Part shown: positions 1-13,920 of the stretch, in pieces
Position numbering within the stretch: the stretch's first letter is position 1
Layout: each line of letters starts with the position of its first letter
Assembly (NCBI GenBank): GCA_022704585.1
Contig: JAKJGD010000009.1
Location: 1-13,920, forward strand
DNA length: 13,920 nucleotides
Direction: 5' to 3'
DNA from: Spirochaetota bacterium
GTDB lineage: Bacteria; Spirochaetota; UBA4802; UBA5550
Program-made: the position numbers and the translations under genes
Notes under the pieces: model-generated
Databases searched by the model: none
Told to the model about the DNA's origin: nothing
Seen by the model: the letters and a program-made list of their open reading frames with translations, nothing else

Positions 1-300
1 GACGTCACGGAATTCAACGGGATGAAGAAGGCCTTCGGCGATTCCCTGCCCCCCTTCTCCGGCATTAAACCCTATATCGGCCATACCGTGGGGGCAAGCG
101 GTGTGATCGAGCTTGTCATTATCATTGAATCGATCGCGCGGGGCTTTTTTCCGGCCACGCCCGGGTTCGAGGAGGCCGATGACGAGATCGGCGCGCGCCC
201 CCTGACAGAACCCTTGCCCATGACCGGGGGCACTGTCATGCTGAACTTCTTCGGATTCGGGGGCAACTGCACCTCTTATATCGTCACCAACAAGGACTGA
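1..300 (+). CDS. Beta-ketoacyl-ACP synthase, C-terminal end (5' truncated by window)
   Basis: The last 99 residues of a condensing enzyme that extends an acyl chain by decarboxylative condensation with malonyl-ACP. The reading frame is open from base 1 to a TGA at 298-300. The motif KPYIGHTVGASGVIELV holds the second catalytic His (GHT.GA.G), and the closing NFFGFGGNCTSYIV matches the oxyanion/NxFGFGG tail of KAS II-type enzymes. The catalytic Cys and first His lie outside the window, so full activity cannot be judged. The next gene starts 5 bp after the stop with no strong separate ribosome site, so the two are probably translationally coupled. The neighbour is a Cys-less KS homologue, which suggests a KS/chain-length-factor pair as in aryl polyene or type II polyketide systems. 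Family assignment is secure; the exact subfamily is not. Confidence 0.9.
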   Translation, partial: DVTEFNGMKKAFGDSLPPFSGIKPYIGHTVGASGVIELVIIIESIARGFFPATPGFEEADDEIGARPLTEPLPMTGGTVMLNFFGFGGNCTSYIVTNKD

Positions 301-1209: not shown

Positions 1210-2232
1210 TCATTTCCACTTTATTTTTTTCAGCAATAGATAAGCCGCCTTCTCTTCCTCCGCGCATTCGCGATATAATTGGGCAGTTTTTTCAAGATCC
1301 ACCTCGTCGGTTTTACCCTGGATGAACTTCCCGCAGGTTGAAGCGGCAAGCCTCCACTTGTCCCCGATCGCCACGAATTTTTTTGAGGCTTCCAGGAGCT
1401 CCGGGATCTTCAATATATCGTAGGCTTCACGAAGAAAGGCCGCATATATGTACCGGAATCCTCCGCCGCCGGTGCCGACCTCCTCCTGGAAAAGGACTAT
1501 GTGGTAGAAAAGACCCCTGACAAACTTAGTGTTTGGATTTTTCTGGAGCCGCTGTATCATCCTTGCAAAGGTTTTAATTCCAAGGATTCCGTAATAGGGG
1601 AACATCGGCTGCAGCATCATGAAGAGAACGCGTTTGATCGATTTTCTTATCGCTTTTTTATAATCTATCGTTTCAGGAAACTCAAGGGGATAAAACATGA
1701 AACCTTTCGGCGCCTGAGGTCCCCTGGAAAAACGTGCCATCTTAAGATCATCACGGTGAACCCTTGTCATATGGTCCCACAGGGGATCATTGATCAGGTA
1801 TTCATCCCCCTCCTTGCCGGTGACAATGGTCATGTGACTATTGTTGGGAATACGGAACTCCCCCAGAAAATATTTCAGATAGGCCACGGAACCCTGGATT
1901 CCAACCGGTTTGCCTTCATCCAGCAGCCGGTCCAGCTCTTTCATGGCCTCCTCTTCCTGATTGTAATCATAGGTCTTGATGCAGAATTTGATGCCGAGGC
2001 GTTTTTGCACTCCCTTGACTATGCTCTGAGGAAGCATCCGCCACGAGATCAGGGGCCTGCCCCAAATCTTGACGAAGGGGAGGTACACGAAACCGATATT
2101 GCTGGAGATGCCGAAGGCCATGGGTTCCGATAGGTCAAAGCCGTAATTGGTCACAACGGAGGAAACGGACCCTGACTCGCAGTGCCCCCCCTGGTAATGC
2201 CTGTATGGTTTCTGGGCTATTGCTTTTTTCAT
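1210..2232 (-). CDS. BtrH-like acyltransferase / C39-like Cys-His-Asp protein, copy 1
   Basis: A 340-residue protein with a BtrH N-terminal-type domain (family known from butirosin BtrH, which moves an acyl group from an ACP to an aminoglycoside amine). The papain-like signature is visible: Cys18 in GGHCESGS, His133 in NNSHMTIVTG, and Asp149 in YLINDP. The first 190 residues form this domain. The C-terminal half holds a Gly-rich stretch (EEVGTGGGGFRY) shared with copy 2 and ends in LLKKIKWK, as copy 2 does. No signal peptide or membrane segment, so cytosolic. Its ATG overlaps the stop of the upstream HTH-like gene by 4 bp (ATGA), indicating coupling. It converges on the KS-like gene with 34 bp between them. 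The acceptor substrate is unknown; acyl transfer from a carrier protein is inferred from the family and from the FAS-type neighbours. An amidase or protease role is the main alternative. Confidence 0.8.
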   Translation of the reverse strand: MKKAIAQKPYRHYQGGHCESGSVSSVVTNYGFDLSEPMAFGISSNIGFVYLPFVKIWGRPLISWRMLPQSIVKGVQKRLGIKFCIKTYDYNQEEEAMKELDRLLDEGKPVGIQGSVAYLKYFLGEFRIPNNSHMTIVTGKEGDEYLINDPLWDHMTRVHRDDLKMARFSRGPQAPKGFMFYPLEFPETIDYKKAIRKSIKRVLFMMLQPMFPYYGILGIKTFARMIQRLQKNPNTKFVRGLFYHIVLFQEEVGTGGGGFRYIYAAFLREAYDILKIPELLEASKKFVAIGDKWRLAASTCGKFIQGKTDEVDLEKTAQLYRECAEEEKAAYLLLKKIKWK

Positions 2233-2633
2233 GATAGGGTACTCTTGAATTTCATGATAATTTCAACGTCAGTGTGCAGGATATGGGCGTACCGCGCGAG
2301 GGTGGCATCGTCCAGTTTTTCGAATCCCTTAGGTGTTAAATGCTTTTTCACTTTTCGCCATGGTATCTCGGTAAATTGGGCCAGGCCGACAGGATCCAGA
2401 TATGCACAGTACATGAAGTATTCAAGCGGTGATGACTGACCATTTTTAATTCTTTCCTTTGCCTGTTCCGCCAGTTCCCTGAACTCCTCCTGGAGATTGA
2501 GTCCTGCATAGTATCCCGGATCCCATCCATCTGATTGAACTTTTTCAAATTTACCCTCGTCATTCTCCGCGTATTGGACAAGGGTTGTCTTGAGCATCCT
2601 TTTACCGTCTTGAGGAACTTCTTTAACTTTCAT
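2229..2633 (-). CDS. Small HTH-like protein paired with BtrH homologue, copy 1
   Basis: A 134-residue protein of no named family that I recognise. The first 50 residues look like a variable, acidic lead. Residues 61-125 resemble a helix-turn-helix of the XRE kind: SPLEYFMYCAYLD, LAQFTEIPWRKVKKHL, then F..LDD..LARYA. The same pattern recurs in the paralogue before the second BtrH gene (SPLEYFM, R.VKKH, D..L.RYA). Starts at an ATG with AGGG about 8 bp upstream, and its TGA overlaps the BtrH start by 4 bp. Upstream lies a minus-strand TTGACA element (2688-2683). Two roles are possible: a DNA-binding regulator of its own operon, or a protein partner of the acyltransferase. The obligatory pairing seen twice here fits either. 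No catalytic residues are evident. Confidence 0.7.
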   Translation of the reverse strand: MKVKEVPQDGKRMLKTTLVQYAENDEGKFEKVQSDGWDPGYYAGLNLQEEFRELAEQAKERIKNGQSSPLEYFMYCAYLDPVGLAQFTEIPWRKVKKHLTPKGFEKLDDATLARYAHILHTDVEIIMKFKSTLS

Positions 2634-2682
2634 ATTAACACCCTGTTACATGATTCAGTACCTTTATTTCAAAATATGTTTT

Positions 2683-2694
2683 TGTCAACATAAA
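2683..2694 (-). promoter_or_regulatory. Candidate -35 element and conserved TTTATGTTGACA motif upstream of HTH/BtrH copy 1
   Basis: Read on the minus strand the sequence is TTTATGTTGACA, a perfect TTGACA preceded by TTTATG. It lies about 50 bp before the ATG of the HTH-like gene. A convincing -10 at 16-18 bp is not visible (best is TAAAGG), so this is either an activator-dependent promoter or an operator. Nearly the same block stands upstream of both methyltransferase genes. Confidence 0.35.
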
Positions 2695-2713
2695 ATCCAG
2701 CGAAGAATCCCCT

Positions 2714-2731
2714 GTAATCCTGATGGATTAC
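2714..2731. repeat. Perfect 7-bp inverted repeat
   Basis: GTAATCC and GGATTAC separated by TGAT form a perfect palindrome with a 4-nt centre. It sits in the divergent space between the HTH/BtrH operon and methyltransferase 1, about 80 bp from the HTH start. It could be a binding site for a dimeric regulator or a small hairpin. Confidence 0.4.
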
Positions 2732-2766
2732 CAACTTATTGATCACAGTACATTACCATATCAACC

Positions 2767-2847
2767 TGTCATTTCGAACGAAGCGAGAAATCATTCCCCG
2801 GTTATTTATAAAAGATTTCTCAATCGCTGTGCTCCTTCGAAACGACA
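2767..2847. repeat. REP/MITE-like imperfect hairpin repeat
   Basis: The left end TGTCATTTCGA and the right end TCGAAACGACA are inverted repeats with one mismatch. Inside them GAAGCGAGAAATC is answered by GATTTCTC, then an unpaired bulge, then CTTCG. This layout (TGTCATTTCGAACGAAGCGAG ends folding into a bulged stem) resembles dispersed intergenic hairpin elements in many bacterial genomes. The TGTCAT end also has a second possible partner, ATGACAGG at 2889-2896. Only one copy is in the window. Confidence 0.55.
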
Positions 2848-2906
2848 ATACGCCATATGTTTGTCTAATTTCTAATAGGTCCAAACAGGATGACAGGGAT
2901 TGCTTA

Positions 2907-2924
2907 ATTGAATTTATGTTGACT
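2907..2924 (+). promoter_or_regulatory. Conserved upstream block of methyltransferase 1, containing TTGACT
   Basis: ATTGAATTTATGTTGACT stands 94 bp before the ATG. It differs by one base from the block 87 bp before the methyltransferase 2 start (3910-3927). The TTGACT (2919-2924) can serve as a -35 hexamer, but no good -10 is placed at 16-18 bp. The block may be a shared promoter or operator, or a relic of the duplication that made the two genes. Confidence 0.4.
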
Positions 2925-3000
2925 ATATCACTGCAAACAGTACACTCAAAAAACTGCTGTAGAATATGTTCATCAATAATCTAATTATCACGAGGTTATC

Positions 3001-3825
3001 ATGGAAGCAGATAAATGGTGGAGCACCTGGGCCCCGGTTTGGGACCATATCGAAGACAGGCATTTCGGCACCACGACCACCGAATTACTTATGGACCAGA
3101 TAAAACCTGAAGTCCTGGTAATAGGCGCCGGCCAGGGGCTTATCGTACGGTATTTAAAGAATAAAGGCATCAGCGCAACGGGCCTTGATATTAATCCCGA
3201 CATGGTCAAAGTCGCGAAAGATAAATATGATCTCGCCATAGTTGAAGGCGATGCCGGAAAACTGCCCTTCCAGGATGATTCATACGCCACCGTTATTATT
3301 TCTTCGGGCGTGGTCGATTACGGAGCCGATGAAGCAGCCATTACCACCTTCATAAACGAAGCGAAAAGGGTCTGCCGAAGGGGCGGAAAGATCCTGGCGG
3401 CCTTTTATAAAATTACCGGGCGCATTGAAAAAATATACAAGAAGATCGGCGTCATCGATTCGGACAGCATGTACCGCATGAAGAGAATCTTCGAGATCAA
3501 CGAAATAGCCGAGAAATTCCCCCCTCTCTGCGCCATCCCCATACAGAAATGGACGGGTAAAAGCATGGCGCGGGTCAATTTCGAGTGGCTCATTGTCGGC
3601 CTGACGCAGCCAAAGGAATTCAAGACCGAAAGAAAATGGATCAATGCCCTGTTTAAAAACGCCAGGAAAATAGGCCTGGAAAAAAAAGTCATGCTCGAAA
3701 GCGTCCCGGACTCGATACCCTATCGCACTACGGTGCAGGTTAAAGAATTAATGGAAAAAATCCATGTCGGGTACCGGGAAATAAAAGAATATGATGATTC
3801 CTCGGTCGTGATCATCGAAAAATAG
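3001..3825 (+). CDS. Class I SAM-dependent methyltransferase, copy 1
   Basis: A 274-residue soluble methyltransferase. The Rossmann core follows a distinctive leader WWSTWAPVWDHIEDRHFGT: motif I is VLVIGAGQG (residues 38-46), the acidic ribose-binding residue is Asp63 in GLDINPDM, and VEGDAG (81-86) and LPF follow, as in Methyltransf_11-type enzymes. The C-terminal 110 residues vary more and probably set the substrate. Starts at an ATG with GAGG 5 bp upstream. It is transcribed away from the HTH/BtrH pair. About two thirds of its residues, by eye, match copy 2, the N-terminal half most strongly. Because small-molecule methyltransferases often travel with tailoring enzymes, it probably methylates the product or head group of the pathway; the substrate is not deducible. 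Confidence 0.85.
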   Translation: MEADKWWSTWAPVWDHIEDRHFGTTTTELLMDQIKPEVLVIGAGQGLIVRYLKNKGISATGLDINPDMVKVAKDKYDLAIVEGDAGKLPFQDDSYATVIISSGVVDYGADEAAITTFINEAKRVCRRGGKILAAFYKITGRIEKIYKKIGVIDSDSMYRMKRIFEINEIAEKFPPLCAIPIQKWTGKSMARVNFEWLIVGLTQPKEFKTERKWINALFKNARKIGLEKKVMLESVPDSIPYRTTVQVKELMEKIHVGYREIKEYDDSSVVIIEK

Positions 3826-3845
3826 CGTCACGGGCTCTCAATGAA

Positions 3846-3908
3846 GGCTTGCCGTACCAGGTCCAGTATCTCGGGTTTATCCACAATCGTGTGACTGCAC
3901 CAGGGCTG
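3846..3908 (-). pseudogene. Decayed fragment of a B12-radical SAM gene
   Basis: On the minus strand this short stretch reads QPWCSHTIVDKPEILDLVRQA and soon meets a TGA (3830-3828). The intact radical SAM protein encoded at 6314-7597 contains WCSHTIEDKPEVLDMARQA: 15 of 19 positions from W to the final A are identical, and the DNA is also similar. Upstream on the same frame a stop appears within about 15 codons. There is no CxxxCxxC motif, no start and no room for a domain, so this is an internal relic of a second radical SAM gene left between the two methyltransferases. It implies that the duplicated block once carried its own radical SAM gene. Confidence 0.7.
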
Positions 3909-3909
3909 T

Positions 3910-3927
3910 ATTGAATTTATATTGACT
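3910..3927 (+). promoter_or_regulatory. Conserved upstream block of methyltransferase 2, containing TTGACT
   Basis: ATTGAATTTATATTGACT, one base different from the block before methyltransferase 1. It lies 87 bp before the chosen start at 3997 and next to the radical SAM relic. A possible -10 (GATAGA near 3942) follows the TTGACT at about 15-17 bp but is poor. The TTG inside this block should not be taken as a start codon. Confidence 0.4.
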
Positions 3928-3996
3928 TCAGCAGAGCGACTGATAGAAAATCAGACTGTTATTGAGAGGCTGCAATCCAATTTTCACGAGATCGGC

Positions 3997-4824
3997 ATGA
4001 AAACTGACAGATGGTGGAGCACCTGGGCGCCGGTATGGGATCATATAGAGGACCGCCACTTCGGAACCAGGACAACAGAAGCACTTAGTGACAGAATTAC
4101 ATCCGATGTACTGATAATCGGCGCCGGTCAGGGGCTGATTGTTCGCTACCTGAAAGACAAAGGAATCAGGGCGGTCGGCCTCGACATCAACCCCGACATG
4201 GTCAGGACCGCGAAGGAAAAATACAATATTGACATAGTTGAAGGCGATGCCGGCAGCCTGCCCTTCGATGATGAGACGTTCAATACGGTCATCATTTCAT
4301 CAGGCGTGGTAGATTACGGTGCGGATGAAGCCGCGATTGCACGTTTCATCAGCGAGGCGAAACGGGTATGCCGGATCGGCGGAATAATATTTGCGGCATT
4401 CTACCGCATAGTGCCGCCCATAGAAAAGATATACCGGCAGATCGGCGTAATCGACAATCATAACATCTACCACATGATACGGATCTTCGAGGTCAACGAG
4501 ATAGGCGCACGGCGCCCGTTCAAATGCATGTACCGGATACATCAATGGTCCGGCATGGACCTCATTCGGGCCTTTTTTTACTGGACATGGGTGGGTATTA
4601 CCCTTCCGAAAGAATTCATGGGCGAACGGGACTGGATCAACGACATTTTCAGAAAGGCAGCGGAAATGGGTATTGAGAAAAAAACCCTCCTCGACAGCGT
4701 GCCGGATAAAATTCCATACCGTGCCAAAACCGACATCGAGGCGCTGCTCGGCAGGATCAATGTCCGGTATCGCGAGATCATGGAATTTGACGACTGCTCT
4801 GTCGTCGTCATAGAGAAAGCATAG
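3997..4824 (+). CDS. Class I SAM-dependent methyltransferase, copy 2
   Basis: A 275-residue paralogue of the preceding methyltransferase. The same leader (WWSTWAPVWDHIEDRHFGT), glycine motif IGAGQG (41-46), Asp63 in GLDINPDM and VEGDAG are present. The ATG at 3997 is chosen because it lines up exactly with the copy 1 start (TCACGAG, 6 bases, ATG in both), although an in-frame TTG at 3922 would add 25 unconserved residues. The ribosome site (CGAGA) is weaker than in copy 1. The C-terminal half differs noticeably (for example QWSGMDLIRAFFYWTW against KWTGKSMARVNFEWLI), suggesting different acceptors or different methylation positions. It converges on BtrH copy 2 with 51 bp between the stops. 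Confidence 0.85.
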   Translation: MKTDRWWSTWAPVWDHIEDRHFGTRTTEALSDRITSDVLIIGAGQGLIVRYLKDKGIRAVGLDINPDMVRTAKEKYNIDIVEGDAGSLPFDDETFNTVIISSGVVDYGADEAAIARFISEAKRVCRIGGIIFAAFYRIVPPIEKIYRQIGVIDNHNIYHMIRIFEVNEIGARRPFKCMYRIHQWSGMDLIRAFFYWTWVGITLPKEFMGERDWINDIFRKAAEMGIEKKTLLDSVPDKIPYRAKTDIEALLGRINVRYREIMEFDDCSVVVIEKA

Positions 4825-4845
4825 GCCACTCAATGTGCCATGCTG

Positions 4846-4867
4846 CCGGTCAGCGGACTGCTACCGG
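4846..4867. terminator. Weak hairpin between convergent genes
   Basis: CCGGTcAGC and GCTACCGG form an 8-bp stem with one bulged C and a GGACT loop. It lies in the 51-bp gap between methyltransferase 2 and BtrH copy 2. There is no T-tract on either side, so intrinsic termination is uncertain. Confidence 0.25.
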
Positions 4868-4875
4868 TCGAGCGG

Positions 4876-5898
4876 TCACTTCCACTTTATCTTTTTCAGG
4901 ATGAGATAGACTTTTTTCTCGGATTCCGCCCATTCCCGCACGAGTGCGGCCAGGGGCATGAGATCGAAATCGTCCTTCCTGGCCTTCACGATTTGCGCAC
5001 ATACATTGGCGATATTCCGCATGAGGCCCGCAGTCTCGGCCATCTGCATCTTCGCCTCTTCAAGCTCCGGGATGCCGAGGAGTCGGGAAGCCTCCTGCAA
5101 GAACGCCGCGAACATGTAGCGGAACCCGCCGCCGCCCGTGCCCACTTCCTCCTGGAACATGAGCAGGTTGCCCAGGAAGCCGCGCACGTACTTCTTGTCC
5201 GGACTCCTATGGAGCTTCTCGATTTTCCGCGCGAGGGTTTTGATTCCCTTGATCCCGACGATCGGGAAGATCGGCTGGAGCATCATGCTGACGGTCTGCT
5301 TTATACCCTTCTGTATCGCGTGCCGGTAGTCTATCGAAGCGGGGACCGATTCAGGGTAGAATATAAAGCCGCGCGGCGCGAACATACCTTTCTCGAAACG
5401 TGCCTTGCGCAGATTTTCGGCGTTGAGTCTCATTGGATGATCAATCATAGAGTCGCTGATAAGGTAATAATTCCCTTCCTTTCCGTAAATTACAATTGTG
5501 TGACCGTTGAAAAAGACGCGAAATTCGAGTTTTAAATATATGAGATAGTTCATGCAGGTCTGCAGACCCACCGGCTGGCCCTGGGCCAGGAGCGCGTCCA
5601 GCTCATCCATTGCTTCCTGCTCGTCGCTATACGTTTTCGTTACGAATTGTATTCCAAGCCGCTTCTGAATTTTTTTCAGAATCATGCTCGGCGGCATACG
5701 GTAGGATATCATCGGGTGACCCCACACCTTGACAGGGGGAAAGTAAAAAAAAATGAGTGCACTGGCGATCCCGAATATCAGCGGCTCAGAAATTTCGAGT
5801 CCTGAATTCTTCAGCATGTTACAGACGGCCCCTGATTCACAGTGGGCCGCCTCATAATGAACGTATGTCCGGTCATCTTTCTTGTTCATGTCAATCAT
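4876..5898 (-). CDS. BtrH-like acyltransferase / C39-like Cys-His-Asp protein, copy 2
   Basis: A 340-residue paralogue of the protein at 1210-2232, of exactly the same length. The triad is kept: Cys20 in AAHCESGA, His133 in FNGHTIVIYG and Asp149 in YLISDS, so both copies look active. It also shares EEVGTGGGGFRY and the C-terminal LILKKIKWK. The N-terminal BtrH-type domain (about 1-190) is cytosolic, with no signal peptide. Its ATG overlaps the upstream HTH-like stop by 4 bp, as in copy 1, and it is the third gene of the operon radical SAM - HTH - BtrH. In the known family member BtrH the enzyme takes an acyl group from an ACP, and ACP and KS genes lie in this window, so carrier-protein unloading is a reasonable but untested role. 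Sequence differences around residues 120-150 could reflect a different acceptor. Confidence 0.8.
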   Translation of the reverse strand: MIDMNKKDDRTYVHYEAAHCESGAVCNMLKNSGLEISEPLIFGIASALIFFYFPPVKVWGHPMISYRMPPSMILKKIQKRLGIQFVTKTYSDEQEAMDELDALLAQGQPVGLQTCMNYLIYLKLEFRVFFNGHTIVIYGKEGNYYLISDSMIDHPMRLNAENLRKARFEKGMFAPRGFIFYPESVPASIDYRHAIQKGIKQTVSMMLQPIFPIVGIKGIKTLARKIEKLHRSPDKKYVRGFLGNLLMFQEEVGTGGGGFRYMFAAFLQEASRLLGIPELEEAKMQMAETAGLMRNIANVCAQIVKARKDDFDLMPLAALVREWAESEKKVYLILKKIKWK

Positions 5899-6293
5899 AC
5901 CTTGTAATTCTTTATCGTATCAATGTCGATCAGAAACGCCTGTGCGTAACGCTGCAACACGTCGTCACCCAGGGTTTTAAAAACGCCCGGTTTCATATGC
6001 TTTTTCACCTGCCGCCGGGAATAGCCGGTCAGGGCTATGACCAGCTCGATCTCTATATTAGCTTGATGCATGAAATACTCCAGCGGCGACGTCTTCCCCT
6101 GCCTGATCCGCTCCCGCGCATCTTCGGCCCGGTCCCGGTACATATCAAACAGGTTCTCTGCAACGATGACCCCGTATTCAGTCATCTCCTCATACTCCTC
6201 GAACACATTTCCCCTGCCATCCACCGTATACCTGACCCGCCTGCTATTTGCATCAAACAGATTACCGTTCTTATCAGTATCAAGAATTTTCAT
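5895..6293 (-). CDS. Small HTH-like protein paired with BtrH homologue, copy 2
   Basis: A 132-residue paralogue of the protein at 2229-2633. The C-terminal 70 residues carry the shared pattern RIRQGKTSPLEYFM, IALTGYSRRQVKKHM and F..LGDDVLQRYA, which reads like an XRE-type helix-turn-helix. The N-terminal 50 residues are divergent and acidic. Starts at an ATG with GGAG 7 bp upstream, 20 bp after the radical SAM stop, and overlaps the BtrH start by 4 bp. I do not recognise a named family. It could be an autoregulator or a dedicated partner of BtrH. Confidence 0.7.
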   Translation of the reverse strand: MKILDTDKNGNLFDANSRRVRYTVDGRGNVFEEYEEMTEYGVIVAENLFDMYRDRAEDARERIRQGKTSPLEYFMHQANIEIELVIALTGYSRRQVKKHMKPGVFKTLGDDVLQRYAQAFLIDIDTIKNYKV

Positions 6294-6313
6294 GAATCAC
6301 TCCAATTCCGCCG

Positions 6314-7597
6314 TTATTGATTCACTTGATCCGCTCCGTCTATCGCCGAGCCGAAGGCCTGCCGCATAAGGTCGCGCCGCCGGGGCTTGTAGGTACCCAG
6401 AGTCCGCTCCCGCTCAACAACCTTCTGGATGAGCCGGAACATCTTGTACTGCTGCGGCTCGTCCTGGTAGAAACGCTCCCACGCGAAGTAGTAGAGTTCC
6501 TGGAGCCGCTCCGGGCTCAGGAGCTTCGGCCGGTACACGACCCTGCCGGCATTGTAGTTGTTCCAGTCGCGGTCGGTGATCCGCTTCTGCTTGACCATGT
6601 CGTCCCAGGCCTTGGTGTGCGGAAACGGTGTGAGGACAGTAAATTCCGCCAGGTCAAGGTCGATCTCCAGGAGAAAGTCGATGAGCCGCTTGACGTACTC
6701 CTCGTCGTGGTTGTCCATGCCAAGCAGGATCGTGCCCTCGACCGCGATGTCGTGGTCGTGGTAGCGCTTGATGCGCTCCTTGATGAAGTCCGACGTGTCG
6801 AACACGGCCTGGTACACGTACCAGGCGCCTGCCTGCCGCGCCATGTCGAGCACCTCTGGCTTGTCCTCTATGGTATGGCTGCACCAGTTCTTCTTCAGGG
6901 GAATCATCTCCCGGAAGAGATCGAGCTCCCATTGCGTATCCTGTGCCAGCGAATTATCCACCACGAAGAGCCGGTTGTTGTCCACCAGGGCAATTTCTTC
7001 AATGGCCTTATCTATCGGGCGCGGTCTGAATTTTCGTCCGCCCAGATAGGCAACGGCACAGGGATAGCAGTTGAACCGGCAGCCGCGCGAGGCATGGACC
7101 AGGTCAACCATCTGCACGCCCTTGTAATAATAGAGGTCGCGCTTGTATATGCTTCGCCGTGCCGGGCCTACGCTCTCGATCGGGGGAAGGTCCGCGATGT
7201 AATTATACACGCTCTTGAGGGCGCCGGTCCTGAAATCGGTGAACACCTCCTCCATGTGTCCCTCGGCCTCCCCGAGGAAAACCGCGTCCGCGTGCTGGAG
7301 CGTCTCCTCGGCATGCAGCATGGTCGAGATGCCGCCGAAGATCACCTTAACGCCCCGTTTCCGGTATTCGTCCGCAATGGCCCACCCCCGCTTGACCTGC
7401 GTGGTAAGCATCATGGATATGCCCACGAAATCCACCGGGTCGTCAAAGCTGAAAGATTCCAGATTCTCGTCAACGAACTCAACGTGGACATAATCAGGAA
7501 GCGCGGCAGCCATGACCGCCGGGCCGTGTGGCGGCAGGTTGAAGGTGGTCTGCTCCGGGAGCTTTTCCCAGCGCGGATAAATGAGCCTGAATTTCAT
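6314..7597 (-). CDS. B12-binding-domain radical SAM protein
   Basis: A 427-residue radical SAM enzyme of the cobalamin-binding type. The N-terminal part (about 1-150) looks like a B12-binding fold: LPPHGPAVMAAALPD, FVGISMM, VIFGGISTMLHAEE and DAVFLGEAEG. The 4Fe-4S cluster motif CxxxCxxC is GCRFNCYPC (cysteines near 173, 177 and 180). A TIM-barrel part follows (FVVDNSL, VEGTILLGMDNHDEE, EFTVLTPFPHTKAWD) and then a basic tail. The ATG at 7597 is preferred because AAGGAG lies 6 bp before it; a TTG two codons upstream overlaps that spacing. First gene of an operon with HTH and BtrH copy 2. Members of this class do methyl transfers or C-C bond rearrangements; the substrate here is unknown. A fragment of a second such gene survives at 3846-3908. 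Confidence 0.85.
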   Translation of the reverse strand: MKFRLIYPRWEKLPEQTTFNLPPHGPAVMAAALPDYVHVEFVDENLESFSFDDPVDFVGISMMLTTQVKRGWAIADEYRKRGVKVIFGGISTMLHAEETLQHADAVFLGEAEGHMEEVFTDFRTGALKSVYNYIADLPPIESVGPARRSIYKRDLYYYKGVQMVDLVHASRGCRFNCYPCAVAYLGGRKFRPRPIDKAIEEIALVDNNRLFVVDNSLAQDTQWELDLFREMIPLKKNWCSHTIEDKPEVLDMARQAGAWYVYQAVFDTSDFIKERIKRYHDHDIAVEGTILLGMDNHDEEYVKRLIDFLLEIDLDLAEFTVLTPFPHTKAWDDMVKQKRITDRDWNNYNAGRVVYRPKLLSPERLQELYYFAWERFYQDEPQQYKMFRLIQKVVERERTLGTYKPRRRDLMRQAFGSAIDGADQVNQ

Positions 7598-7622
7598 GGA
7601 CAACTCCTTTTTCGATTCACAT

Positions 7623-7643: not shown

Positions 7644-7849
7644 TGTCAAGCATTTTCAAAAATTGATCATACGATCATATTGTTCAAACGGACGCGTAAT
7701 GTAAATAAATATTCCGAATACTTGTCCGGAGGAATATATTTTTACCATCAATCAATTTCATCCGGGGGCCCTGTTCCCGGTTTTCATGATGTTTTTCATC
7801 GATATTGATTTTAACTGCTTGCAATATTTTTTTAATTGCACAGTATATG

Positions 7850-7855
7850 TATAAT
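7850..7855 (+). promoter_or_regulatory. Possible -10 box of the PAS histidine kinase gene
   Basis: A perfect TATAAT lies 13 bp before the chosen ATG, but no -35 hexamer is found at 16-18 bp (only a T-run). If used, the leader would be about 6 nt. The surrounding intergenic stretch, 7656-7849, is AT-rich and shows nothing else recognisable. Confidence 0.3.
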
Positions 7856-7867
7856 CACGGAAAGCCC

Positions 7868-10405
7868 ATGCCAACTAAAAAGAAACCGGGAAAGGCCACT
7901 CCCCATGTCTCTTCACGGGCGCCTAAGGATAAGTATAAGGTACTCTTCGAGAGCTCTGCTACAGCCAATGCAATCATCGCCGAAGACTCGACTATTCTGC
8001 TTGTAAATTCAAATTTTGAAAAACTCCTCGGGTATTCGCGCGAGGAGATACAGGGCAGGATGAAGTGGACCTCCTTCGTGACCGAGGAATACCTCGCGGA
8101 CATGAAAGAATACTATGACCACCGAAAAGAAGAATACAGCACCCTGCCCCAGAGCTATGAATTCAGCGCCAGGGTCCGATCCGGTGAAATCAAACAACTC
8201 TATATCAGCATTGCACTGATCCCTGAAACGAATGAAAGCATGATTTCGCTGATCGATATTACCGGGCGCAAAAAGATGGAAGAAGCCCTCAAACAGAGCG
8301 AGGAGCGGTTTCGGGACCTGGCGCGGCTCCTGCCCGAGTCGGTGTACGAAGCGGACCTCGAGGGAAGGATCATCTATGTGAACGATGTTGCCCTGGAGCG
8401 ATTCGGATATACTCGCGAGGATATTTCAGCCGGCCTGACATTACTGAAGCTTGTCCTTCCTGAACAACGGGCCCGGGCTCAGCAGAATATCGGCAAATTA
8501 TTAAAGGGGGAAAAGCTCGGCCTCAATGAATATATGATAATCCGAAAGGACGGGACCAGCTTCCCCGCCCTGGTCCATTCCACTCCCATAATGCAGAACG
8601 GCCAGGCTGTCGGTCTCAGGGGCTTCCTGGCGGACATCTCCAGCATCAAGCGGGTTGAAGAAAACCTGAAATTGTTCCAGTACACCATTGACCAGGCCTC
8701 TGAAGTCATCTTCTGGCTCACGCGCGACGGAGGGTTCGAATATGTCAACGACGAGGCCTGCCGCTCCCTGGGGTATACGCGCTCAGAGCTGCTTGGCATG
8801 AAACTTTGGGACATAGATCCCGTCCTCTCCATCGAAAAATGGGAATCGGACCAGGCCCGGTATCATTTAAACAGGCAGGGCGGGTCGGACACCTTCGAAA
8901 GCGTTCACCGGTGCAAGGACGGCACCCGGTACCCGGTCGAGGTAAAAACCCAGTTCCTCTGGTTCGGCGAGCATGAGATGCATGTCGCCGTCGTGCGGGA
9001 CATTTCAGAACGCAAGCAGGCCGAGAAGGAATTGCACGAAAGCGAGGAACACTGGCGTTTTGCAATAGAGAGGACCGGCCACGGATTGTGGGACTGGAAC
9101 ATGGAATCGAATGCCGTCTATTATTCGCCCCAGTGCAAGGCCATGCTCGGATATACCGATGATGAAATGGGAACCGGGATAGAGGAATGGATAAACCGCG
9201 TTCATCCCGATGATTTTAATCGAGCCAACCGCGCTCTTGAAGATCACCTGAACGGCACCACGCCCATGTATTACAGTGAGCACCGCTGCAGATGCAAGAA
9301 CGGCGAATACCGGTGGTTCCAGGACCGGGGAATGGTCATGAGACGCTCGCCTGAGGGCAAACCGCTCCGGATGATCGGCACGCAAACGGATATAACCGGG
9401 CACCGGCAGGAGCTTGCACGCTATTCGTCCTTCATCAAATTTGCCCTGGACGGTCTCGTGGTATTTGACAGGTCCGGCCACATCGTGGAAGCCAATGAAT
9501 CGTATGCGAAAATGCTCGGTTATAACCAGGACGAGCTAATGGGGATGTTCCTTGGTGATCTCGATGCCAGGTTCAATCTTGAGGAAATGCATTCCCTCAC
9601 CGAAATCATGATGAGAGAGGGATCGGCGCGGTTCGAGACCCAGCATCGCAGAAAGGACGGCGGCGTCATAGATGTGGAGGTCAGCATCAGGCTCCATGAA
9701 AAGGAATACGACTACCTTTTTGTGATCATTCGCGATATAACAGAGAAAAAGAAAGCTGCCGCAGCCCTTGAAAATTCCCTGCAGGAAAAGCAGGCCCTCC
9801 TGAAAGAGCTGCAGCACCGGATGAAAAACAGCCTGGCGATGATAACAAGCATAGTAGCAATAGAGAGCGAGAGGCCGGAAAACGCCGGCGCCCGGAAGAT
9901 ACTGGACATATTAAGGGGGAGGATCGATTCACTGGCTAACCTTTATACCATCCTGTTTCAATCAGAGCAGGCGGCACTGGTGAACCTGGACCAGTATGTT
10001 TACGCCATCATCAGGTCGCTTGCCAGCACCTATGTTACTGCTGCCAGCGGCATAACAATAAAACCTGATTGCACCCCGGTTTGCACAGATACAAAAAGTG
10101 CCACCGCCTGGGGTCTTATCACCAACGAATTGCTTACCAATGCCCTCAAATACGCCTTTCCGAAGGGCGGGGGTGTAATCCGTGTCATTCTCGGACACTC
10201 GAACGGGAACATTGAACTTGCGGTAACTGACGATGGTCCGGGGCCTGCGCCCGGATTCGACATTGAGCACCCGACCGGGTTCGGCCTGCTCCTGGTGGGA
10301 ATGCTCGCAAAGCAGCTGGGAGGATCATTCACCTTCGAGCGAGGGCGGGAAAACATGTTTCTTGTGCGCGCGCTTGAAACGGTTGATGCAACGAAGTGCC
10401 TCTAA
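7868..10405 (+). CDS. Soluble multi-PAS sensor histidine kinase (HisKA_2/HWE-like)
   Basis: An 845-residue sensor kinase without membrane segments. Five PAS-like repeats start near residues 22, 147, 267, 395 and 515; most show the N....LGY(T/S)..E pattern and end in a DI(T/S).(R/K)K-type linker. The fourth (HVHPDD-like VHPDDF and YRWFQDRG) resembles PAS_3. The phosphoacceptor is His650 in LLKELQHRMKNSLAMI, a HisKA_2-type dimerisation box. The ATPase part has the N box TNELLTNALKYAF (about 751) and TDDGPGP, then GFGLLLVGMLAKQLGG. The ATG at 7868 is chosen for the nearby GGAAAG; an upstream TTG and an ATG at 7847 lack a ribosome site. No receiver domain and no adjacent response regulator. It is probably a cytosolic redox, ligand or light sensor signalling to an unlinked regulator; a link to the biosynthetic genes is only positional. 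Confidence 0.9.
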   Translation: MPTKKKPGKATPHVSSRAPKDKYKVLFESSATANAIIAEDSTILLVNSNFEKLLGYSREEIQGRMKWTSFVTEEYLADMKEYYDHRKEEYSTLPQSYEFSARVRSGEIKQLYISIALIPETNESMISLIDITGRKKMEEALKQSEERFRDLARLLPESVYEADLEGRIIYVNDVALERFGYTREDISAGLTLLKLVLPEQRARAQQNIGKLLKGEKLGLNEYMIIRKDGTSFPALVHSTPIMQNGQAVGLRGFLADISSIKRVEENLKLFQYTIDQASEVIFWLTRDGGFEYVNDEACRSLGYTRSELLGMKLWDIDPVLSIEKWESDQARYHLNRQGGSDTFESVHRCKDGTRYPVEVKTQFLWFGEHEMHVAVVRDISERKQAEKELHESEEHWRFAIERTGHGLWDWNMESNAVYYSPQCKAMLGYTDDEMGTGIEEWINRVHPDDFNRANRALEDHLNGTTPMYYSEHRCRCKNGEYRWFQDRGMVMRRSPEGKPLRMIGTQTDITGHRQELARYSSFIKFALDGLVVFDRSGHIVEANESYAKMLGYNQDELMGMFLGDLDARFNLEEMHSLTEIMMREGSARFETQHRRKDGGVIDVEVSIRLHEKEYDYLFVIIRDITEKKKAAAALENSLQEKQALLKELQHRMKNSLAMITSIVAIESERPENAGARKILDILRGRIDSLANLYTILFQSEQAALVNLDQYVYAIIRSLASTYVTAASGITIKPDCTPVCTDTKSATAWGLITNELLTNALKYAFPKGGGVIRVILGHSNGNIELAVTDDGPGPAPGFDIEHPTGFGLLLVGMLAKQLGGSFTFERGRENMFLVRALETVDATKCL

Positions 10406-10446: not shown

Positions 10447-11094
10447 TCATCGCAGCGGCTCCGCCTCTATCAGGTCAAGAAGCAGCGAATAGCCGATTGC
10501 ACCGTGCGCCTCGAGCTCGATTCCGCCCGGCAGCCCGTCGCCCCGGATTCGAACAAACCGCGCGGTGCGCGACTTGCGTTCCCCTGAATACGAAACGACG
10601 TCAACAGTCCCGTCCGGCGCGGGAGAGATGTCCGTCACGTCTCCGCCGGACCGGTACCGGCACGTTTGCCTGCCGCGCGCCAGGCCGATTTCGGCCGGAA
10701 CACCCGCAGGGGCGAAGAGCATAAACCTGATGTCCCGCACCATCCCCATCACCATGTCCGGGTTCGAGAAGGGGCCGATGCCGCGCAGAATGACCAGCTT
10801 CCCGTCATAGGTTGCATCGCAGAGTACCAGCCCCTCCACGGACATCAGCACGCAGCGGAGCCGGCCAGATGAAGGCAGCGCCTCGGTCACGCCGATCATG
10901 GTCGTACCGCCCCCGCCGGGGAACGAACCGCTTATGGAATGGACGAGCCGCCATCCTTTTTCGAGAAAGGGCGCGCTGCACTGCTCGGGGTGTGCGGAGC
11001 TATCATCGCCCGGCGCGGGCCTGAGTTGTGGTATGCCCGAGCAGGCAACGAACAGGGGGAGCAGGAGACATGCGAGAGCGCGGTTGCATCCCAT
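10447..11094 (-). CDS. DUF3261-like predicted lipoprotein
   Basis: A 215-residue protein with a lipoprotein signal: the basic start MGCNR, a Leu-rich core, and FVAC with the modifiable Cys at 18 followed by SGIPQL. The body is rich in short beta-strand-like segments, and the C-terminal GGIELEAHGAIGYSLLLDLI resembles the DUF3261 lipoproteins of aryl polyene clusters, which may act like LolB at the outer membrane. Last gene of the minus-strand operon. Its ATG shares one base with the stop of the LolA-like gene (TGATG); a GTG one codon earlier gives a 4-bp overlap instead. Converges on the kinase gene with 41 bp between. The lipoprotein call is fairly secure; the DUF3261 assignment rests on weak C-terminal similarity plus position. 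Confidence 0.7.
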   Translation of the reverse strand: MGCNRALACLLLPLFVACSGIPQLRPAPGDDSSAHPEQCSAPFLEKGWRLVHSISGSFPGGGGTTMIGVTEALPSSGRLRCVLMSVEGLVLCDATYDGKLVILRGIGPFSNPDMVMGMVRDIRFMLFAPAGVPAEIGLARGRQTCRYRSGGDVTDISPAPDGTVDVVSYSGERKSRTARFVRIRGDGLPGGIELEAHGAIGYSLLLDLIEAEPLR

Positions 11095-11711
11095 CACATT
11101 TTCCGGAATACCGCTTCCGGGATCTTTTCGTTCAGCTTCACATCGCTGAACGAGATCACGGTGCGGGACTTTTCGCTTTCATATATCGTGACCGAGCGGA
11201 TCACGCCGGGCCTGTCAGAAAGCTTCAGCTCGATTTTCGTTATAATATCCGACATTCCTTTTTCCTTCGGCGTGAGGAGGATCGTCCGGCCGGCCTTGAG
11301 CTCGGCCCTGAAAGCGGGGTTCGTATCGAAATTCCCCTTCATCCAGAGGGCTATCTCCTGGATCACGACCCGCATCGACTGGAGGCGGGCGGCAGAATCC
11401 TGCACAACGGCATCGCCCCGTTTCACGTAGCGACTTATCGAGCTGCCGTGCACCAGGAGAACGCTCCACACGGGCGAGGAATATTCCCACCGCAGCGAGC
11501 CGGGCGCCTGGTAATAGAGCTTCCCTTTTGATACCAGCGGCTTCGCCAGGATCTCCATCTGCTTTATCTGCGTGAAGCCGGCCTCAACGGAGGATATGTT
11601 CCCGGCACCCTTCTTGATCGCGTCCCAGGAATCGCCCCACCCGATGAGGAGGAGGGAGAGAAGAATGGTGGCCATGATTCGCATCAAGGCATTTGTATGT
11701 TGATGTTTCAT
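11094..11711 (-). CDS. LolA-like periplasmic lipid/lipoprotein carrier
   Basis: A 205-residue protein with a signal-peptide-like start (hydrophobic residues about 10-25, MRIMATILLSLLLIG) and a LolA-type body: SSVEAGFTQIKQMEIL, then SKGKLYYQAPGSLRWEY, which is the hallmark F.Q......G.....P...RW.Y region. Then come RTILLTPKEKG and a final ISFSDVKLNEKIPEAVF. LolA-like proteins carry hydrophobic cargo across the periplasm. In aryl polyene clusters a LolA-like gene is thought to deliver the product to the outer membrane. Starts at an ATG with AAGGA about 9 bp upstream, just after a 40-bp perfect hairpin. Overlaps the lipoprotein gene. The MMPL-type exporter often found nearby in such clusters is absent here. 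Confidence 0.8.
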   Translation of the reverse strand: MKHQHTNALMRIMATILLSLLLIGWGDSWDAIKKGAGNISSVEAGFTQIKQMEILAKPLVSKGKLYYQAPGSLRWEYSSPVWSVLLVHGSSISRYVKRGDAVVQDSAARLQSMRVVIQEIALWMKGNFDTNPAFRAELKAGRTILLTPKEKGMSDIITKIELKLSDRPGVIRSVTIYESEKSRTVISFSDVKLNEKIPEAVFRKM

Positions 11712-11728
11712 TTATTTTTTTCCTTACC

Positions 11729-11768: not shown

Positions 11769-11774
11769 GCCCTC

Positions 11775-12512
11775 CTACATCATCCCGCCGTTCACGGAGA
11801 TAACCTGGCCGGTAATATACGAGGCGTCGTCCGAGCAGAGAAAACGTACGACTTTCGCCACCTCCTCCGGTTTTCCGATCCGTCCCATGGGGATGACGTT
11901 CTTGATGAACTCGACCGGCGCGTCCTTGATCATGTCCGTCTCTATAAGCCCGGGCGCGACCACATTCACCCGTATGCCCTTCTTGGCGATCTCCGACGCA
12001 ACGGAGCGGCTCGCTCCGATCAGGCCCGCCTTGGCGGCGGAATAGTTTGCCTGTCCCTTGTTGCCGATAAGCCCGGCCACGGAAGCGATCGAGACCACGG
12101 ACCCTTTTTTCCGCCTGAGCATCTTCTTCAAAACCGGCTTGGTCATGTTGTAAAAGCCCTTGAGGGTCGTGCCGATGACCGCGTCCCAGTCCGCTTCCGG
12201 CATCATGAGGAACAGGTTGTCCGCCGTTATGCCCGCGTTGTTGACCAGCACATCTATCGTTTCGAAGCGCTGCATCATCTCCTCCACCGCCTTCCCGGCC
12301 TGCGCCGAGTCAGCGATATCGAACTTCGCGATCTCGCCGTCGCCGCCCCGCGCGCGGATCAGAGCGAGCGTCTCTTCGGCGGCCGCGTCATTCGAGCGAT
12401 AGTTCGCGACCACGTAGTATCCGTCGGCTGCGAGCTCCAGGACTATGGCGCGGCCGATGCCCCGGCTCCCTCCGGTTACGATGGCGACTTTCTTTTCCTG
12501 CCCTTCGCTCAT
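11775..12512 (-). CDS. fabG: 3-oxoacyl-ACP reductase (FabG/ApeQ-like)
   Basis: A 245-residue short-chain dehydrogenase/reductase that reduces the beta-keto group of an acyl-ACP with NADPH. The nucleotide motif TGGSRGIG is at residues 13-20, NNAG at 91-94, and the catalytic Ser144, Tyr157 and Lys161 stand in SIASVAG and NYSAAKAG. The C-terminal half has the usual VNVVAPGLIETDM and ends with ITGQVISVNGGMM, the standard FabG length and end. Its ATG overlaps the dehydratase stop by 4 bp, so translation is coupled. Within this cluster it corresponds to the reductase step (ApeQ) of an aryl polyene-type iterative synthase rather than to the housekeeping FabG, though that cannot be proven from one gene. 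Confidence 0.93.
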   Translation of the reverse strand: MSEGQEKKVAIVTGGSRGIGRAIVLELAADGYYVVANYRSNDAAAEETLALIRARGGDGEIAKFDIADSAQAGKAVEEMMQRFETIDVLVNNAGITADNLFLMMPEADWDAVIGTTLKGFYNMTKPVLKKMLRRKKGSVVSIASVAGLIGNKGQANYSAAKAGLIGASRSVASEIAKKGIRVNVVAPGLIETDMIKDAPVEFIKNVIPMGRIGKPEEVAKVVRFLCSDDASYITGQVISVNGGMM

Positions 12513-12952
12513 GGCATTGCTCCTTGATCGGATTCCTGTTCCGGACGGAACACCTGCAGCTTGATCTGGCCGACCGTCTCGTCGCCGATCCGGGCGGTTC
12601 CGGCTATCTCGGCATAGGTCCCTCCGCGTTTACGGTCATTGATCGTAACCTCGATGCGGGAGCCGACCGGTATCCGGTCCAGAAAGAACTCGGCCTTCTT
12701 GATGCCCACGATCCAGCCCACCTTCCCCGCTGCCGGGTCCCCTTTCCGCATCTCGTCCCATCCGAAATGCGCGCCCGCGGTCTGTGCCGCCAGCTCGATC
12801 AGTATGATCGGATCGACAAAGCCGTCCTCGCACAGGGGCCAGCGGTCCGACGCGGTGGACGCGGTCACGCACCGTTCATCATCCATAACGGTGATTTCGC
12901 CGATGAGCTTCATGGCTCCGCGGTGGGGGATCAGTGTTTCGATATCGTGCAT
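12509..12952 (-). CDS. Hotdog-fold 3-hydroxyacyl-ACP dehydratase (ApeP-like)
   Basis: A 147-residue hotdog protein of the FabA/FabZ/ApeP kind that would remove water from 3-hydroxyacyl-ACP. The opening IETLIPHRGAMKLI (His10) matches the LPHR.P..L start of the family, and ILIELAAQTAG holds Glu53 and Gln57. The FabZ GHFPxxP segment with its catalytic His is not seen; the equivalent reads CEDGFVDPI. Activity may therefore need a second, outside partner subunit, as described for the ApeI/ApeP pair. The ATG at 12952 is chosen because homology starts there and a promoter ends just upstream; a TTG at 13042 would lie before that promoter. First gene of the operon with fabG, LolA-like and lipoprotein genes. 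Confidence 0.8.
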   Translation of the reverse strand: MHDIETLIPHRGAMKLIGEITVMDDERCVTASTASDRWPLCEDGFVDPIILIELAAQTAGAHFGWDEMRKGDPAAGKVGWIVGIKKAEFFLDRIPVGSRIEVTINDRKRGGTYAEIAGTARIGDETVGQIKLQVFRPEQESDQGAMP

Positions 12953-12981
12953 GGCAAATTTCCGGCCGTCAATGGTACAAT

Positions 12982-13011
12982 ACCATAGTTGCACCGGCGG
13001 ATTGATGTCAA
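12982..13011 (-). promoter_or_regulatory. Promoter of the dehydratase-fabG-LolA-lipoprotein operon
   Basis: On the minus strand TTGACA (13011-13006), 18 bp, then TATGGT (12987-12982). This is a good sigma70-type match, and the predicted transcript start falls about 23 bp before the ATG at 12952. Confidence 0.6.
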
Positions 13012-13021
13012 TAAAAATATC

Positions 13022-13052
13022 TTGACACCAGGCCGGTATCAAATTCTATTCT
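13022..13052 (+). promoter_or_regulatory. Divergent promoter of the ACP-ketosynthase operon
   Basis: Plus-strand TTGACA (13022-13027), followed by TCTATT at 17 bp or TATTCT (13047-13052) at 19 bp. The -35 box is strong, the -10 weak. It stands 10 bp from the -35 of the opposite promoter, so the two -35 hexamers form an inverted repeat (TGTCAA-10-TTGACA) where one regulator could control both operons. Confidence 0.5.
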
Positions 13053-13078: not shown

Positions 13079-13336
13079 ATGGAACAATTGATTTCCGAAC
13101 TTAAAGAAAAAATAATCGAGACGCTTGACCTTATCGATGTCAAGCCATCCGACTTCAAGGAAGACGAGCCGCTTGTCGGCGGACCGCTCGGCATCGATTC
13201 CATCGACATTCTCGAGCTTGCCATGATGATCGACCGCGACTACGGGATTAAAATCGACAACAAGGAGCTGGGGCAGAAAGTCTTCGTATCCCTCAGGACC
13301 CTGGCAGAGCATATCCAAAAAAACAGAAACAGGTAA
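13079..13336 (+). CDS. Acyl carrier protein
   Basis: An 85-residue acidic helical protein. The motif PLGIDSIDILEL carries the Ser that takes the 4'-phosphopantetheine arm (DSI.ILEL), followed by MMIDRDYGIKID, as in ACPs of aryl polyene and other type II FAS-like clusters. It tethers the growing chain while KS, reductase and dehydratase act on it, and it is the natural donor for the BtrH-like acyltransferases in the same window (inference). Starts at an ATG with GAGGAA 5-6 bp upstream. The next gene begins 5 bp after its stop, in one operon with the KS. Confidence 0.92.
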   Translation: MEQLISELKEKIIETLDLIDVKPSDFKEDEPLVGGPLGIDSIDILELAMMIDRDYGIKIDNKELGQKVFVSLRTLAEHIQKNRNR

Positions 13337-13341
13337 CACGC

Positions 13342-13920
13342 GTGAACCGCACTCGGGTTTTCATAACCGGCATGGGGATAACCAGCTCGCTCGGGGAGGG
13401 CGTGGCCGCGCACCTGGACGCGCTGAAGAACAACCGCACCGGCATCCGGCCGCTCGGCCTCTTCACCGTGTCCGAGGGCAACCTGTTCCCGGCCGGCGAA
13501 ATCGCCGGGTTCCGCGCTCCGGCCGGAATTCCCCGCACCCACGCGCTCGCGCTCGCGACGGCGCGCCAGGCGGTCCCCGCCGGCGCGGTACCTGACGCAA
13601 TCATACTGGGCACGACCACCGGCGGCATGCCGTCCACGGAAGAATCCCTCAGGAAGGGAGAGACCGGACCGGATGCCTACCGCCTTCATTCAACTTCGTC
13701 CGTCGCCGAGCTGCTGGCGGCTGAAACAGGCTGCACCGGACCAGTCATGACCGTTACCACGGCCTGCTCGTCGGGAACGGCTGCGATCAAGCTCGCCCTT
13801 GAATTGCTGCGGAACGGGATGGCCCGGCGTGTCCTGGCTGGCGGCGCCGACGCGCTTTGCCGCCTCACCTATTACGGATTCAATTCCCTCCAGCTCATCG
13901 ACCCGGCGGGCGCGCGCCCG
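13342..13920 (+). CDS. Beta-ketoacyl-ACP synthase, N-terminal part (3' truncated by window)
   Basis: The first 193 residues of a condensing enzyme, open to the last base. It starts at a GTG 5 bp after the ACP stop: MNRTRVFITGMGITSSLGEG is the classical V.ITG.G..S.LG start of KAS II-type proteins. The nucleophile Cys142 lies in TVTTACSSGT, and LAGGADALCRLTYYGFNSL follows, so this half is intact. The two His residues are beyond the window. GC is high, like the dehydratase operon. In this context it is the chain-extending KS (ApeO- or ApeR-like); its partner may be the Cys-less protein at 306-1175 or lie to the right. Confidence 0.9.
   Translation, partial: MNRTRVFITGMGITSSLGEGVAAHLDALKNNRTGIRPLGLFTVSEGNLFPAGEIAGFRAPAGIPRTHALALATARQAVPAGAVPDAIILGTTTGGMPSTEESLRKGETGPDAYRLHSTSSVAELLAAETGCTGPVMTVTTACSSGTAAIKLALELLRNGMARRVLAGGADALCRLTYYGFNSLQLIDPAGARP

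What the first reader, a model, noticed from the sequence alone, without database searches (positions are those of the whole stretch)
1210..7597. Duplicated BtrH/HTH island with methyltransferases and a B12-radical SAM inside an aryl-polyene-like cluster
Two BtrH-type Cys-His-Asp proteins, two small HTH-like partners, two methyltransferases and a B12-radical SAM gene lie between aryl-polyene-type parts (KS and Cys-less KS on the left; dehydratase, reductase, LolA, lipoprotein, ACP, KS on the right). BtrH is known to take acyl groups from an ACP to an amine. A polyene or acyl chain handed to a methylated polar acceptor would be a product not covered by the standard aryl polyene scheme. Gene identities are seen; the pathway is inferred.
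Basis: partly seen in the sequence, partly recalled or inferred. Interest (0 to 1): 0.75.

Follow-up and report, generated by a model that had tools for sequence, protein, structure and literature searches.

The report
Doubled polyene-transfer genes in a spirochaete
Two copies of a gene pair known from yellow-orange bacterial pigments sit in a pigment-type gene cluster of an uncultured spirochaete whose examined relatives lack the genes for the molecule that the pigment chain is normally attached to, so the product may be an undescribed pigment lipid.

Summary
The two "BtrH + HTH" pairs are DarH-DarG (NF053550 and NF053536, all four over cut-off), the pair of flexirubin/arcuflavin-type clusters, where an aryl polyene is esterified to a dialkylresorcinol (DAR). 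So the pair is not new, and a known scheme covers handing a polyene to a second lipid.

The context departs. Of 80 loci with DarH, 53 carry the DAR gene DarA, 51 in the order DarA-DarB-DarG-DarH. In the 7 Spirochaetota genomes over the DarH cut-off no DarA and no full DarB was found, and 296 genomes of the phylum gave no DarA match above 33 bits. Nine other genomes also lack DarA. The same cluster carries B12-radical SAM genes.

Best reading: DarH moves the polyene, through an acyl-cysteine, from an ACP to an acceptor not made by DarA/DarB; two diverged pairs suggest two transfers. The acceptor is unknown. The B12-radical SAM belongs to the polyene cluster rather than to an island, and the methyltransferases are a rare family. 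Against: draft genomes, a distant DarB-like KSIII in some, and the window's own genome is not held.

The parts
1210..2232 (-). DarH1: BtrH_N + DUF4872 protein, triad C18/H133/D149
   Evidence: NF053550 356 bits, cut-off 300; Pfam; triad
2229..2633 (-). DarG1: partner with XRE-like HTH domain in its model, overlaps darH1 by 4 b
   Evidence: NF053536 111.5 bits, cut-off 70; model
3001..3825 (+). MT1: class I SAM methyltransferase of a rare family
   Evidence: Pfam Methyltransf_11; 42 homologues at E<=1e-20 among 1205 candidates
3846..3902 (-). 19-residue remnant of the B12-radical SAM gene (79% identical to its residues 240-258)
   Evidence: tblastn
3922..4824 (+). MT2: paralogue of MT1, 64% identical; likely start ATG 3997
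4876..5898 (-). DarH2: second copy, triad C20/H133/D149
   Evidence: NF053550 380 bits; C20 and H133 invariant and D149 invariant in the 40-row alignment; fold like AziU3, CtaG, CcbD
5895..6293 (-). DarG2: partner of DarH2, overlaps darH2 by 4 b
   Evidence: NF053536 85 bits, cut-off 70
6314..7603 (-). B12-binding radical SAM protein of the polyene cluster (ATG start 7597)
   Evidence: Pfam B12-binding 33.9 bits, cut-off 32.1; Radical_SAM 23.2, under cut-off 29.5; 67-88% identical in 13 of 16 genomes, 69% over 251 residues in a 14th, none in 2
1..300 (+). end of a ketosynthase gene
   Evidence: Pfam Ketoacyl-synt_C 32.6 bits
306..1175 (+). KS-like / chain-length-factor-like protein, converging with DarH1
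   Evidence: Pfam ketoacyl-synt 25.3 bits; homologue in 56 of 80 DarH loci
7805..10405 (+). multi-PAS histidine kinase
10447..11097 (-). small cluster protein, lipoprotein-like by eye; no Pfam or NCBIfam match
   Evidence: homologues in L001 and L007, 2 of 80 loci
11094..11711 (-). LolA-like carrier
   Evidence: Pfam LolA 63 bits; NF053544 LolA2_flexi 100 bits, under cut-off 125
11775..12512 (-). 3-ketoacyl-ACP reductase; best NCBIfam match FlxB
   Evidence: NF053542 313.6 bits, under cut-off 340; NF004200 FabG 304.9, over cut-off 273
12509..13042 (-). ApeP-like dehydratase
   Evidence: PF22817 26.6 bits, just under cut-off 27; no NCBIfam match
13079..13336 (+). acyl carrier protein
   Evidence: PF00550 31 bits; NF006617 76.5 bits, cut-off 70
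13342..13920 (+). start of a ketosynthase gene
   Evidence: PF00109 69.2 bits

Best explanation
The window is part of an aryl-polyene-type cluster of an uncultured Spirochaetota bacterium. The two pairs are DarG-DarH. DarH takes the finished polyene acyl chain from an ACP onto its active cysteine and hands it to an acceptor; DarG is its partner, by docking or by control. In flexirubin-type clusters the acceptor is a dialkylresorcinol made by DarB and DarA. Those genes were not found in the relatives, so the acceptor here is probably something else. Two diverged pairs in one locus point to two transfers or two acceptors. The B12-radical SAM protein belongs to the polyene assembly line of this (probably anaerobic) cluster, and the methyltransferases decorate the chain or the acceptor. 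Shown: family membership, triad, fold of the model, pairing, absence of DarA and of full DarB in the genomes searched, the two copies falling in different groups of the tree. Inferred: the transfer reaction, the ACP donor, the non-DAR acceptor, double acylation, roles of the methyltransferases and radical SAM, anaerobic life.
Against: The window's own genome is not held. The relatives are drafts of unstated completeness. A DarB-like KSIII (85-114 bits, cut-off 450) lies about 9 kb from the type-2 DarGH in 5 of 7 genomes, and on another contig in a sixth; it might make a resorcinol-like acceptor, though G001 has none over 37 bits. Four of the 16 DarA-less genomes have a strong DarB hit (420-588 bits), so loss of DarA need not mean loss of DAR. 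Type-1 DarGH is in 5 of the 7 genomes only. Four of 80 loci show no DarG; two of these begin at DarH, two (L031, L048) do not. No product is known.
Confidence: 0.55

Rival explanations
1. Ordinary flexirubin/arcuflavin-type pigment: the acceptor is still a resorcinol, made by enzymes unrelated or only distantly related to DarA/DarB (for instance the KSIII of the type-2 locus, with a radical SAM in place of the aromatase), or DarA/DarB were missed in drafts.
For: The rest of the DAR-type layout (DarGH, CLF, KS, ABC) is kept. A DarB-like KSIII at 85-114 bits lies near type-2 DarGH. Strong DarB without DarA in the genomes of L005, L006, L019 and L057 hints that DarA can be replaced.
Against: G001, which shares the window's double arrangement, has no KSIII over 37 bits, and its three full DarH copies are all type-1. 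The KSIII lies with type-2 DarGH, not with the window-type locus. DarA is missing in 7 of 7.
Confidence: 0.25
2. DarG-DarH is not a transferase pair: DarG is an XRE-type regulator and DarH a papain-like release enzyme or hydrolase.
For: The DarG model has an HTH fold like SinR and ClgR. The N-terminal half of DarH also matches C39-type peptidases.
Against: The best full-length matches of DarH are AziU3, CtaG and CcbD, the last solved with a carrier domain. HppE shows that an XRE-like domain can sit in an enzyme. Pairing in 76 of 80 loci fits a complex.
Confidence: 0.1
3. DarGH works with the lipid-A-type acyltransferase and GT2 of the cluster and acylates an amino sugar lipid as an amide, as BtrH does on an aminoglycoside. 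This is one concrete form of the non-DAR reading.
For: G001 has a Lip_A_acyltrans gene and a GT2 gene on the same contig, about 22 kb from DarH. BtrH acts on an amine (passage).
Against: The E. coli aryl polyene cluster, as listed in Table 1 of PMC8253772 (passage), has glycosyl/acyltransferase genes and no BtrH-type gene, so such anchoring does not need DarGH.
Confidence: 0.2

Closest known systems
Flexirubin / arcuflavin (DAR-polyene) clusters: darA-darB-darD-darE of Azoarcus, DarA-DarB-DarG-DarH of Bacteroidota and others
   Same: DarG-DarH pair in the same order, KS, KS-like partner, ABC transporter (in relatives), polyene reductase/dehydratase/ACP, LolA
   Different: No DarA and no full DarB in the relatives searched; DarGH doubled; B12-radical SAM genes and a rare methyltransferase family
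BtrH (butirosin), CtaG (closthioamide), CcbD, AziU3
   Same: Papain-like fold with Cys-His-Asp; BtrH is described as ACP:aminoglycoside acyltransferase (passage), CcbD is solved with a carrier domain (title); the rest of their roles is recalled
   Different: Identity 12-15% to the three solved proteins; acceptor unknown; partner DarG is an XRE-like HTH protein
E. coli-type aryl polyene (ape) cluster
   Same: KS, reductase, ApeP-like dehydratase, ACP, LolA-like protein
   Different: No BtrH-type and no radical SAM gene in the published E. coli list (passage)
Kuenenia / Desulfotalea radical-SAM type II fatty-acid clusters (PMC2649909, passages)
   Same: A TIGR04072 (rSAM_ladder_B12) gene in G001 on the same contig as the window-type locus; several radical SAM genes, KS paralogues, a polysaccharide deacetylase
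   Different: Phytoene-desaturase-like genes not looked for; 'butirosin' does not occur in that paper

Membership tests
DarH (NF053550) | score over the curated cut-off of 300 bits | tested here: met
   356 and 380 bits
DarH (NF053550) | Cys-His-Asp triad of BtrH-type proteins | tested here: met
   C18/H133/D149 and C20/H133/D149
DarG_fam (NF053536) | score over 70 bits, gene directly upstream of darH | tested here: met
   111.5 and 85 bits, 4-b overlap
flexirubin DarG (NF053545) | score over 170 bits | tested here: not met
   100 and 83 bits
DAR-polyene (flexirubin-type) cluster | DarA | tested here: not met
   no hit in the window nor in 7 of 7 related genomes; the window's own genome is not held, so this speaks for the lineage
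DAR-polyene (flexirubin-type) cluster | DarB | tested here: inconclusive
   0 of 11 over cut-off, but a distant KSIII in part of the genomes; own genome not held
DAR-polyene (flexirubin-type) cluster | polyene-resorcinol ester as product | not testable with these tools
   needs lipid chemistry
Aryl polyene cluster | KS and KS-like partner, reductase, dehydratase, ACP, LolA | tested here: met
   dehydratase 0.4 bit under its Pfam cut-off
Aryl polyene cluster | aryl starter enzymes (ammonia lyase or chorismatase, ligase) | tested here: inconclusive
   not seen in the window; in G001 an AMP-binding enzyme and an aromatic amino acid lyase on the same contig; the lyase scores 426 (TAL BagA) and 414 (HutH), both under cut-off
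BtrH-type acyltransferase | transfer from a carrier protein to an acceptor | not testable with these tools
   fold and triad only
TIGR04072 (rSAM_ladder_B12) | window radical SAM protein over 360 bits | tested here: not met
   45 bits; a separate gene is over cut-off in 6 of 7 related genomes, 310 bits in the seventh

The most novel reading that the evidence does not exclude
A radical-SAM-rich, probably anaerobic branch of the polyene-pigment family uses doubled DarG-DarH pairs to put two acyl groups (two polyenes, or a polyene and a fatty acid) on a non-resorcinol acceptor, giving an undescribed class of double-chain polyene lipid in Spirochaetota; relatives in other anaerobic lineages do the same with one pair.
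Probability: 0.3. Interest if true: 0.7.

Novelty: new variant of a known kind. Interest (0 to 1): 0.5.

Why it matters
If true, the transfer pair of flexirubin-type pigments is a module that can be parted from its resorcinol acceptor. That points to new membrane lipids in a radical-SAM-rich branch that shares a gene family with ladderane-type clusters, and it makes the role of DarG-DarH, for which I saw no experiment in the papers opened, testable with small purified proteins.

Tried and rejected
Reading the seven genes as one island: rejected. The B12-radical SAM gene is conserved at 67-71% in 6 genomes outside Spirochaetota, two of them with DarA (G306, G307), and lies 5-22 kb from a TIGR04072 gene in 7 genomes.

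Tying the methyltransferase to the doubling: it first looked so (window, L001, L162), but a phylum search found it in 5 of 296 genomes, among them G136 with a single type-1 pair. Of its 42 homologues 13 share a longest-contig length with a listed DarH or radical SAM protein, which suggests shared contigs but is only an inference. Only 6 of the 42 carry an organism name: 5 Spirochaet-, 1 Chrysiogenales.

tblastn against plasmids gave 63 records, 45 of them Acinetobacter, at 25-29% identity in the 20 rows shown. A repeat-like stretch near 2760-2860: one 21-b piece had no exact match in 182 loci. Promoter- and terminator-like sites (13 each, shuffles 8.2 and 6.7) gave nothing clear.

Literature, ten searches: (flexirubin + BtrH) gave one paper; (DarG/DarH) five, of which PMC3949708 alone is on topic (PMC10312091 and PMC11187115 opened as passages are not; the other two judged by title). 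Searches listed no title on this system among the rows shown (up to 20 of 39, 10 of 180, 15 of 54, 8, 11, 1, 12 of 39 and 11). Preprints and most subscription papers are not held, so absence from print is not claimed. Read: PMC3949708 passages and section 18; passages only of PMC3992019, PMC2649909, PMC8253772, PMC10318531, PMC8430323 and PMC2922099. The roles of CtaG and AziU3 and the meaning 'ladderane' for the TIGR04072 name are recalled.
Full report
What is there. The window holds, on the minus strand, two gene pairs whose products match DarH (NF053550, 356 and 380 bits, cut-off 300) and DarG_fam (NF053536, 111.5 and 85 bits, cut-off 70). In each pair the stop of the first gene overlaps the start of the second by 4 bases. 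Between the pairs lie two methyltransferases, 64% identical, in a tandem DNA repeat (2978-3511 against 3974-4507, 73%). A B12-radical SAM gene follows. On the left lie a ketosynthase end and a KS-like protein; on the right a histidine kinase, a small protein without a family, LolA, a reductase whose best match is FlxB (under its cut-off), an ApeP-like dehydratase, an ACP and a ketosynthase start.

Host. A protein identical to the radical SAM protein is named as from a Spirochaetota MAG, and the nearest relatives of DarH2 that carry an organism name are Spirochaetes MAGs. No genome is held for the window.

What the pair is. Of these 80, DarG is in 76, DarA in 53, DarB in 56 (55 over 100 bits), the KS-like protein in 56 and the ABC permease in 62; 51 show the order DarA-DarB-DarG-DarH within 5 kb. 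This is the DAR cluster of flexirubin-type pigments; in Azoarcus the same genes are darA, darB, darD and darE ("BtrH-like peptidase"), beside ABC, ACP and KS genes (PMC3949708, section 18). That paper predicts an ester bond between polyene and DAR (passage); darE occurs in it once, in that table.

What is missing. Of 296 genomes of the phylum, 7 pass the DarH cut-off and 24 more match below it. The 7 are also the ones found among 46 genomes of one order. None of the 7 has DarA (one 23-bit hit in G043 disregarded) and none a full DarB. In the phylum 16 of 296 genomes give weak DarA matches of 33 bits or less, all to the N-terminal part, which I take for flavodoxin-like proteins. Nine further genomes lack DarA (L002, L003, L005, L006, L007, L008, L012, L019, L057), so 16 of the 30 examined lack it; four of these nine (L005, L006, L019, L057) have a strong DarB hit. 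The 30 were chosen by me: the 7, and 23 of the 80 loci, 20 of them without DarA in the fetched stretch. Six other loci without local DarA (L013, L023, L031, L034, L056, L068) were not searched genome-wide. All are of unstated completeness, so a single absence means little; the weight lies in 7 of 7.

Where it sits. G001 (L001, contig of 143,778 b) repeats the window's layout: dehydratase, reductase, LolA, a PAS-rich kinase (by eye), radical SAM, DarG-DarH, methyltransferase, DarG-DarH, CLF, KS, ABC. Farther out are an AMP-binding enzyme, two more radical SAM genes, KS genes, a deacetylase and a TIGR04072 protein (408 bits, cut-off 360) on one side, and an aromatic amino acid lyase, a lipid-A-type acyltransferase and GT2 on the other. 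G103 (L162) has two DarGH pairs in tandem, then the methyltransferase and the radical SAM; G043, G136 and G163 have one pair of this type. G001 has also a lone third pair and a decayed copy. Six genomes carry a second kind of DarGH in another locus, with a DarB-like KSIII about 9 kb away in five. G098 and G123 have only this second kind, although they keep both B12-radical SAM types.

TIGR04072 is over cut-off in 11 of 16 DarA-less and 7 of 31 DarA-bearing genomes (47 genomes: the 30 and 17 added for their local DarA). This follows kinship and perhaps life style, so it is no independent proof. The window's radical SAM type is found at 67-88% identity in 13 of 16 genomes, as a 251-residue piece at 69% in a 14th, and not (at E<=1e-30) in Solimonas or Flavobacterium.

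Age of the doubling. In a tree of 95 DarH the ten Spirochaetota type-1 sequences form one supported group (100/100). Window DarH1 falls with copies of G103, G136 and the lone copy of G001 (100/99), window DarH2 with another copy of G001 (100/100). The simplest reading is that the two copies parted before these species did, and both keep full triads. A 19-residue remnant of the radical SAM gene lies between the methyltransferases in the orientation of the converging methyltransferase/radical SAM pair seen in G103 and G136, a trace of past rearrangement.

Verdict. The finding is real. New to my knowledge is the pair without the resorcinol genes, doubled, in a radical-SAM-rich polyene cluster. 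The acceptor is the open question.

Noticed in passing
window 3846-3902 (-): 19-residue remnant of the B12-radical SAM gene between the two methyltransferase genes.
   Followed up: yes
L156-L161 (G043, G098, G103, G123, G136, G163): A second kind of DarGH locus; in L156 with a DarB-like KSIII, enoyl-CoA hydratase, 3HCDH, an HtrA-like protease and a second PDZ_3 protein, a DUF2279 protein, B12-radical SAM genes and an O-methyltransferase; L161 is arranged differently.
   Followed up: partly
genomes of L005, L006, L019, L057: Strong DarB without DarA; DarA may be replaced in these lineages.
   Followed up: partly
L001:9128-9527: Decayed third DarG-DarH pair upstream of the two intact ones.
   Followed up: partly
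window 6314-7603: The B12-radical SAM belongs to a very large family (6,156 homologues at E<=1e-60 among 7,999 scored) and passes no NCBIfam cut-off.
   Followed up: partly
window 11728-11769: 42-b self-inverse repeat (95%) between the reductase and LolA genes, terminator-like.
   Followed up: no
window 2760-2860: Stretch that looks like a dispersed inverted-repeat element; one 21-b piece has no exact match in 182 loci.
   Followed up: partly
plasmid records: Distant BtrH_N proteins in 63 plasmid records, 45 of them Acinetobacter (25-29% identity in the 20 rows shown).
   Followed up: no
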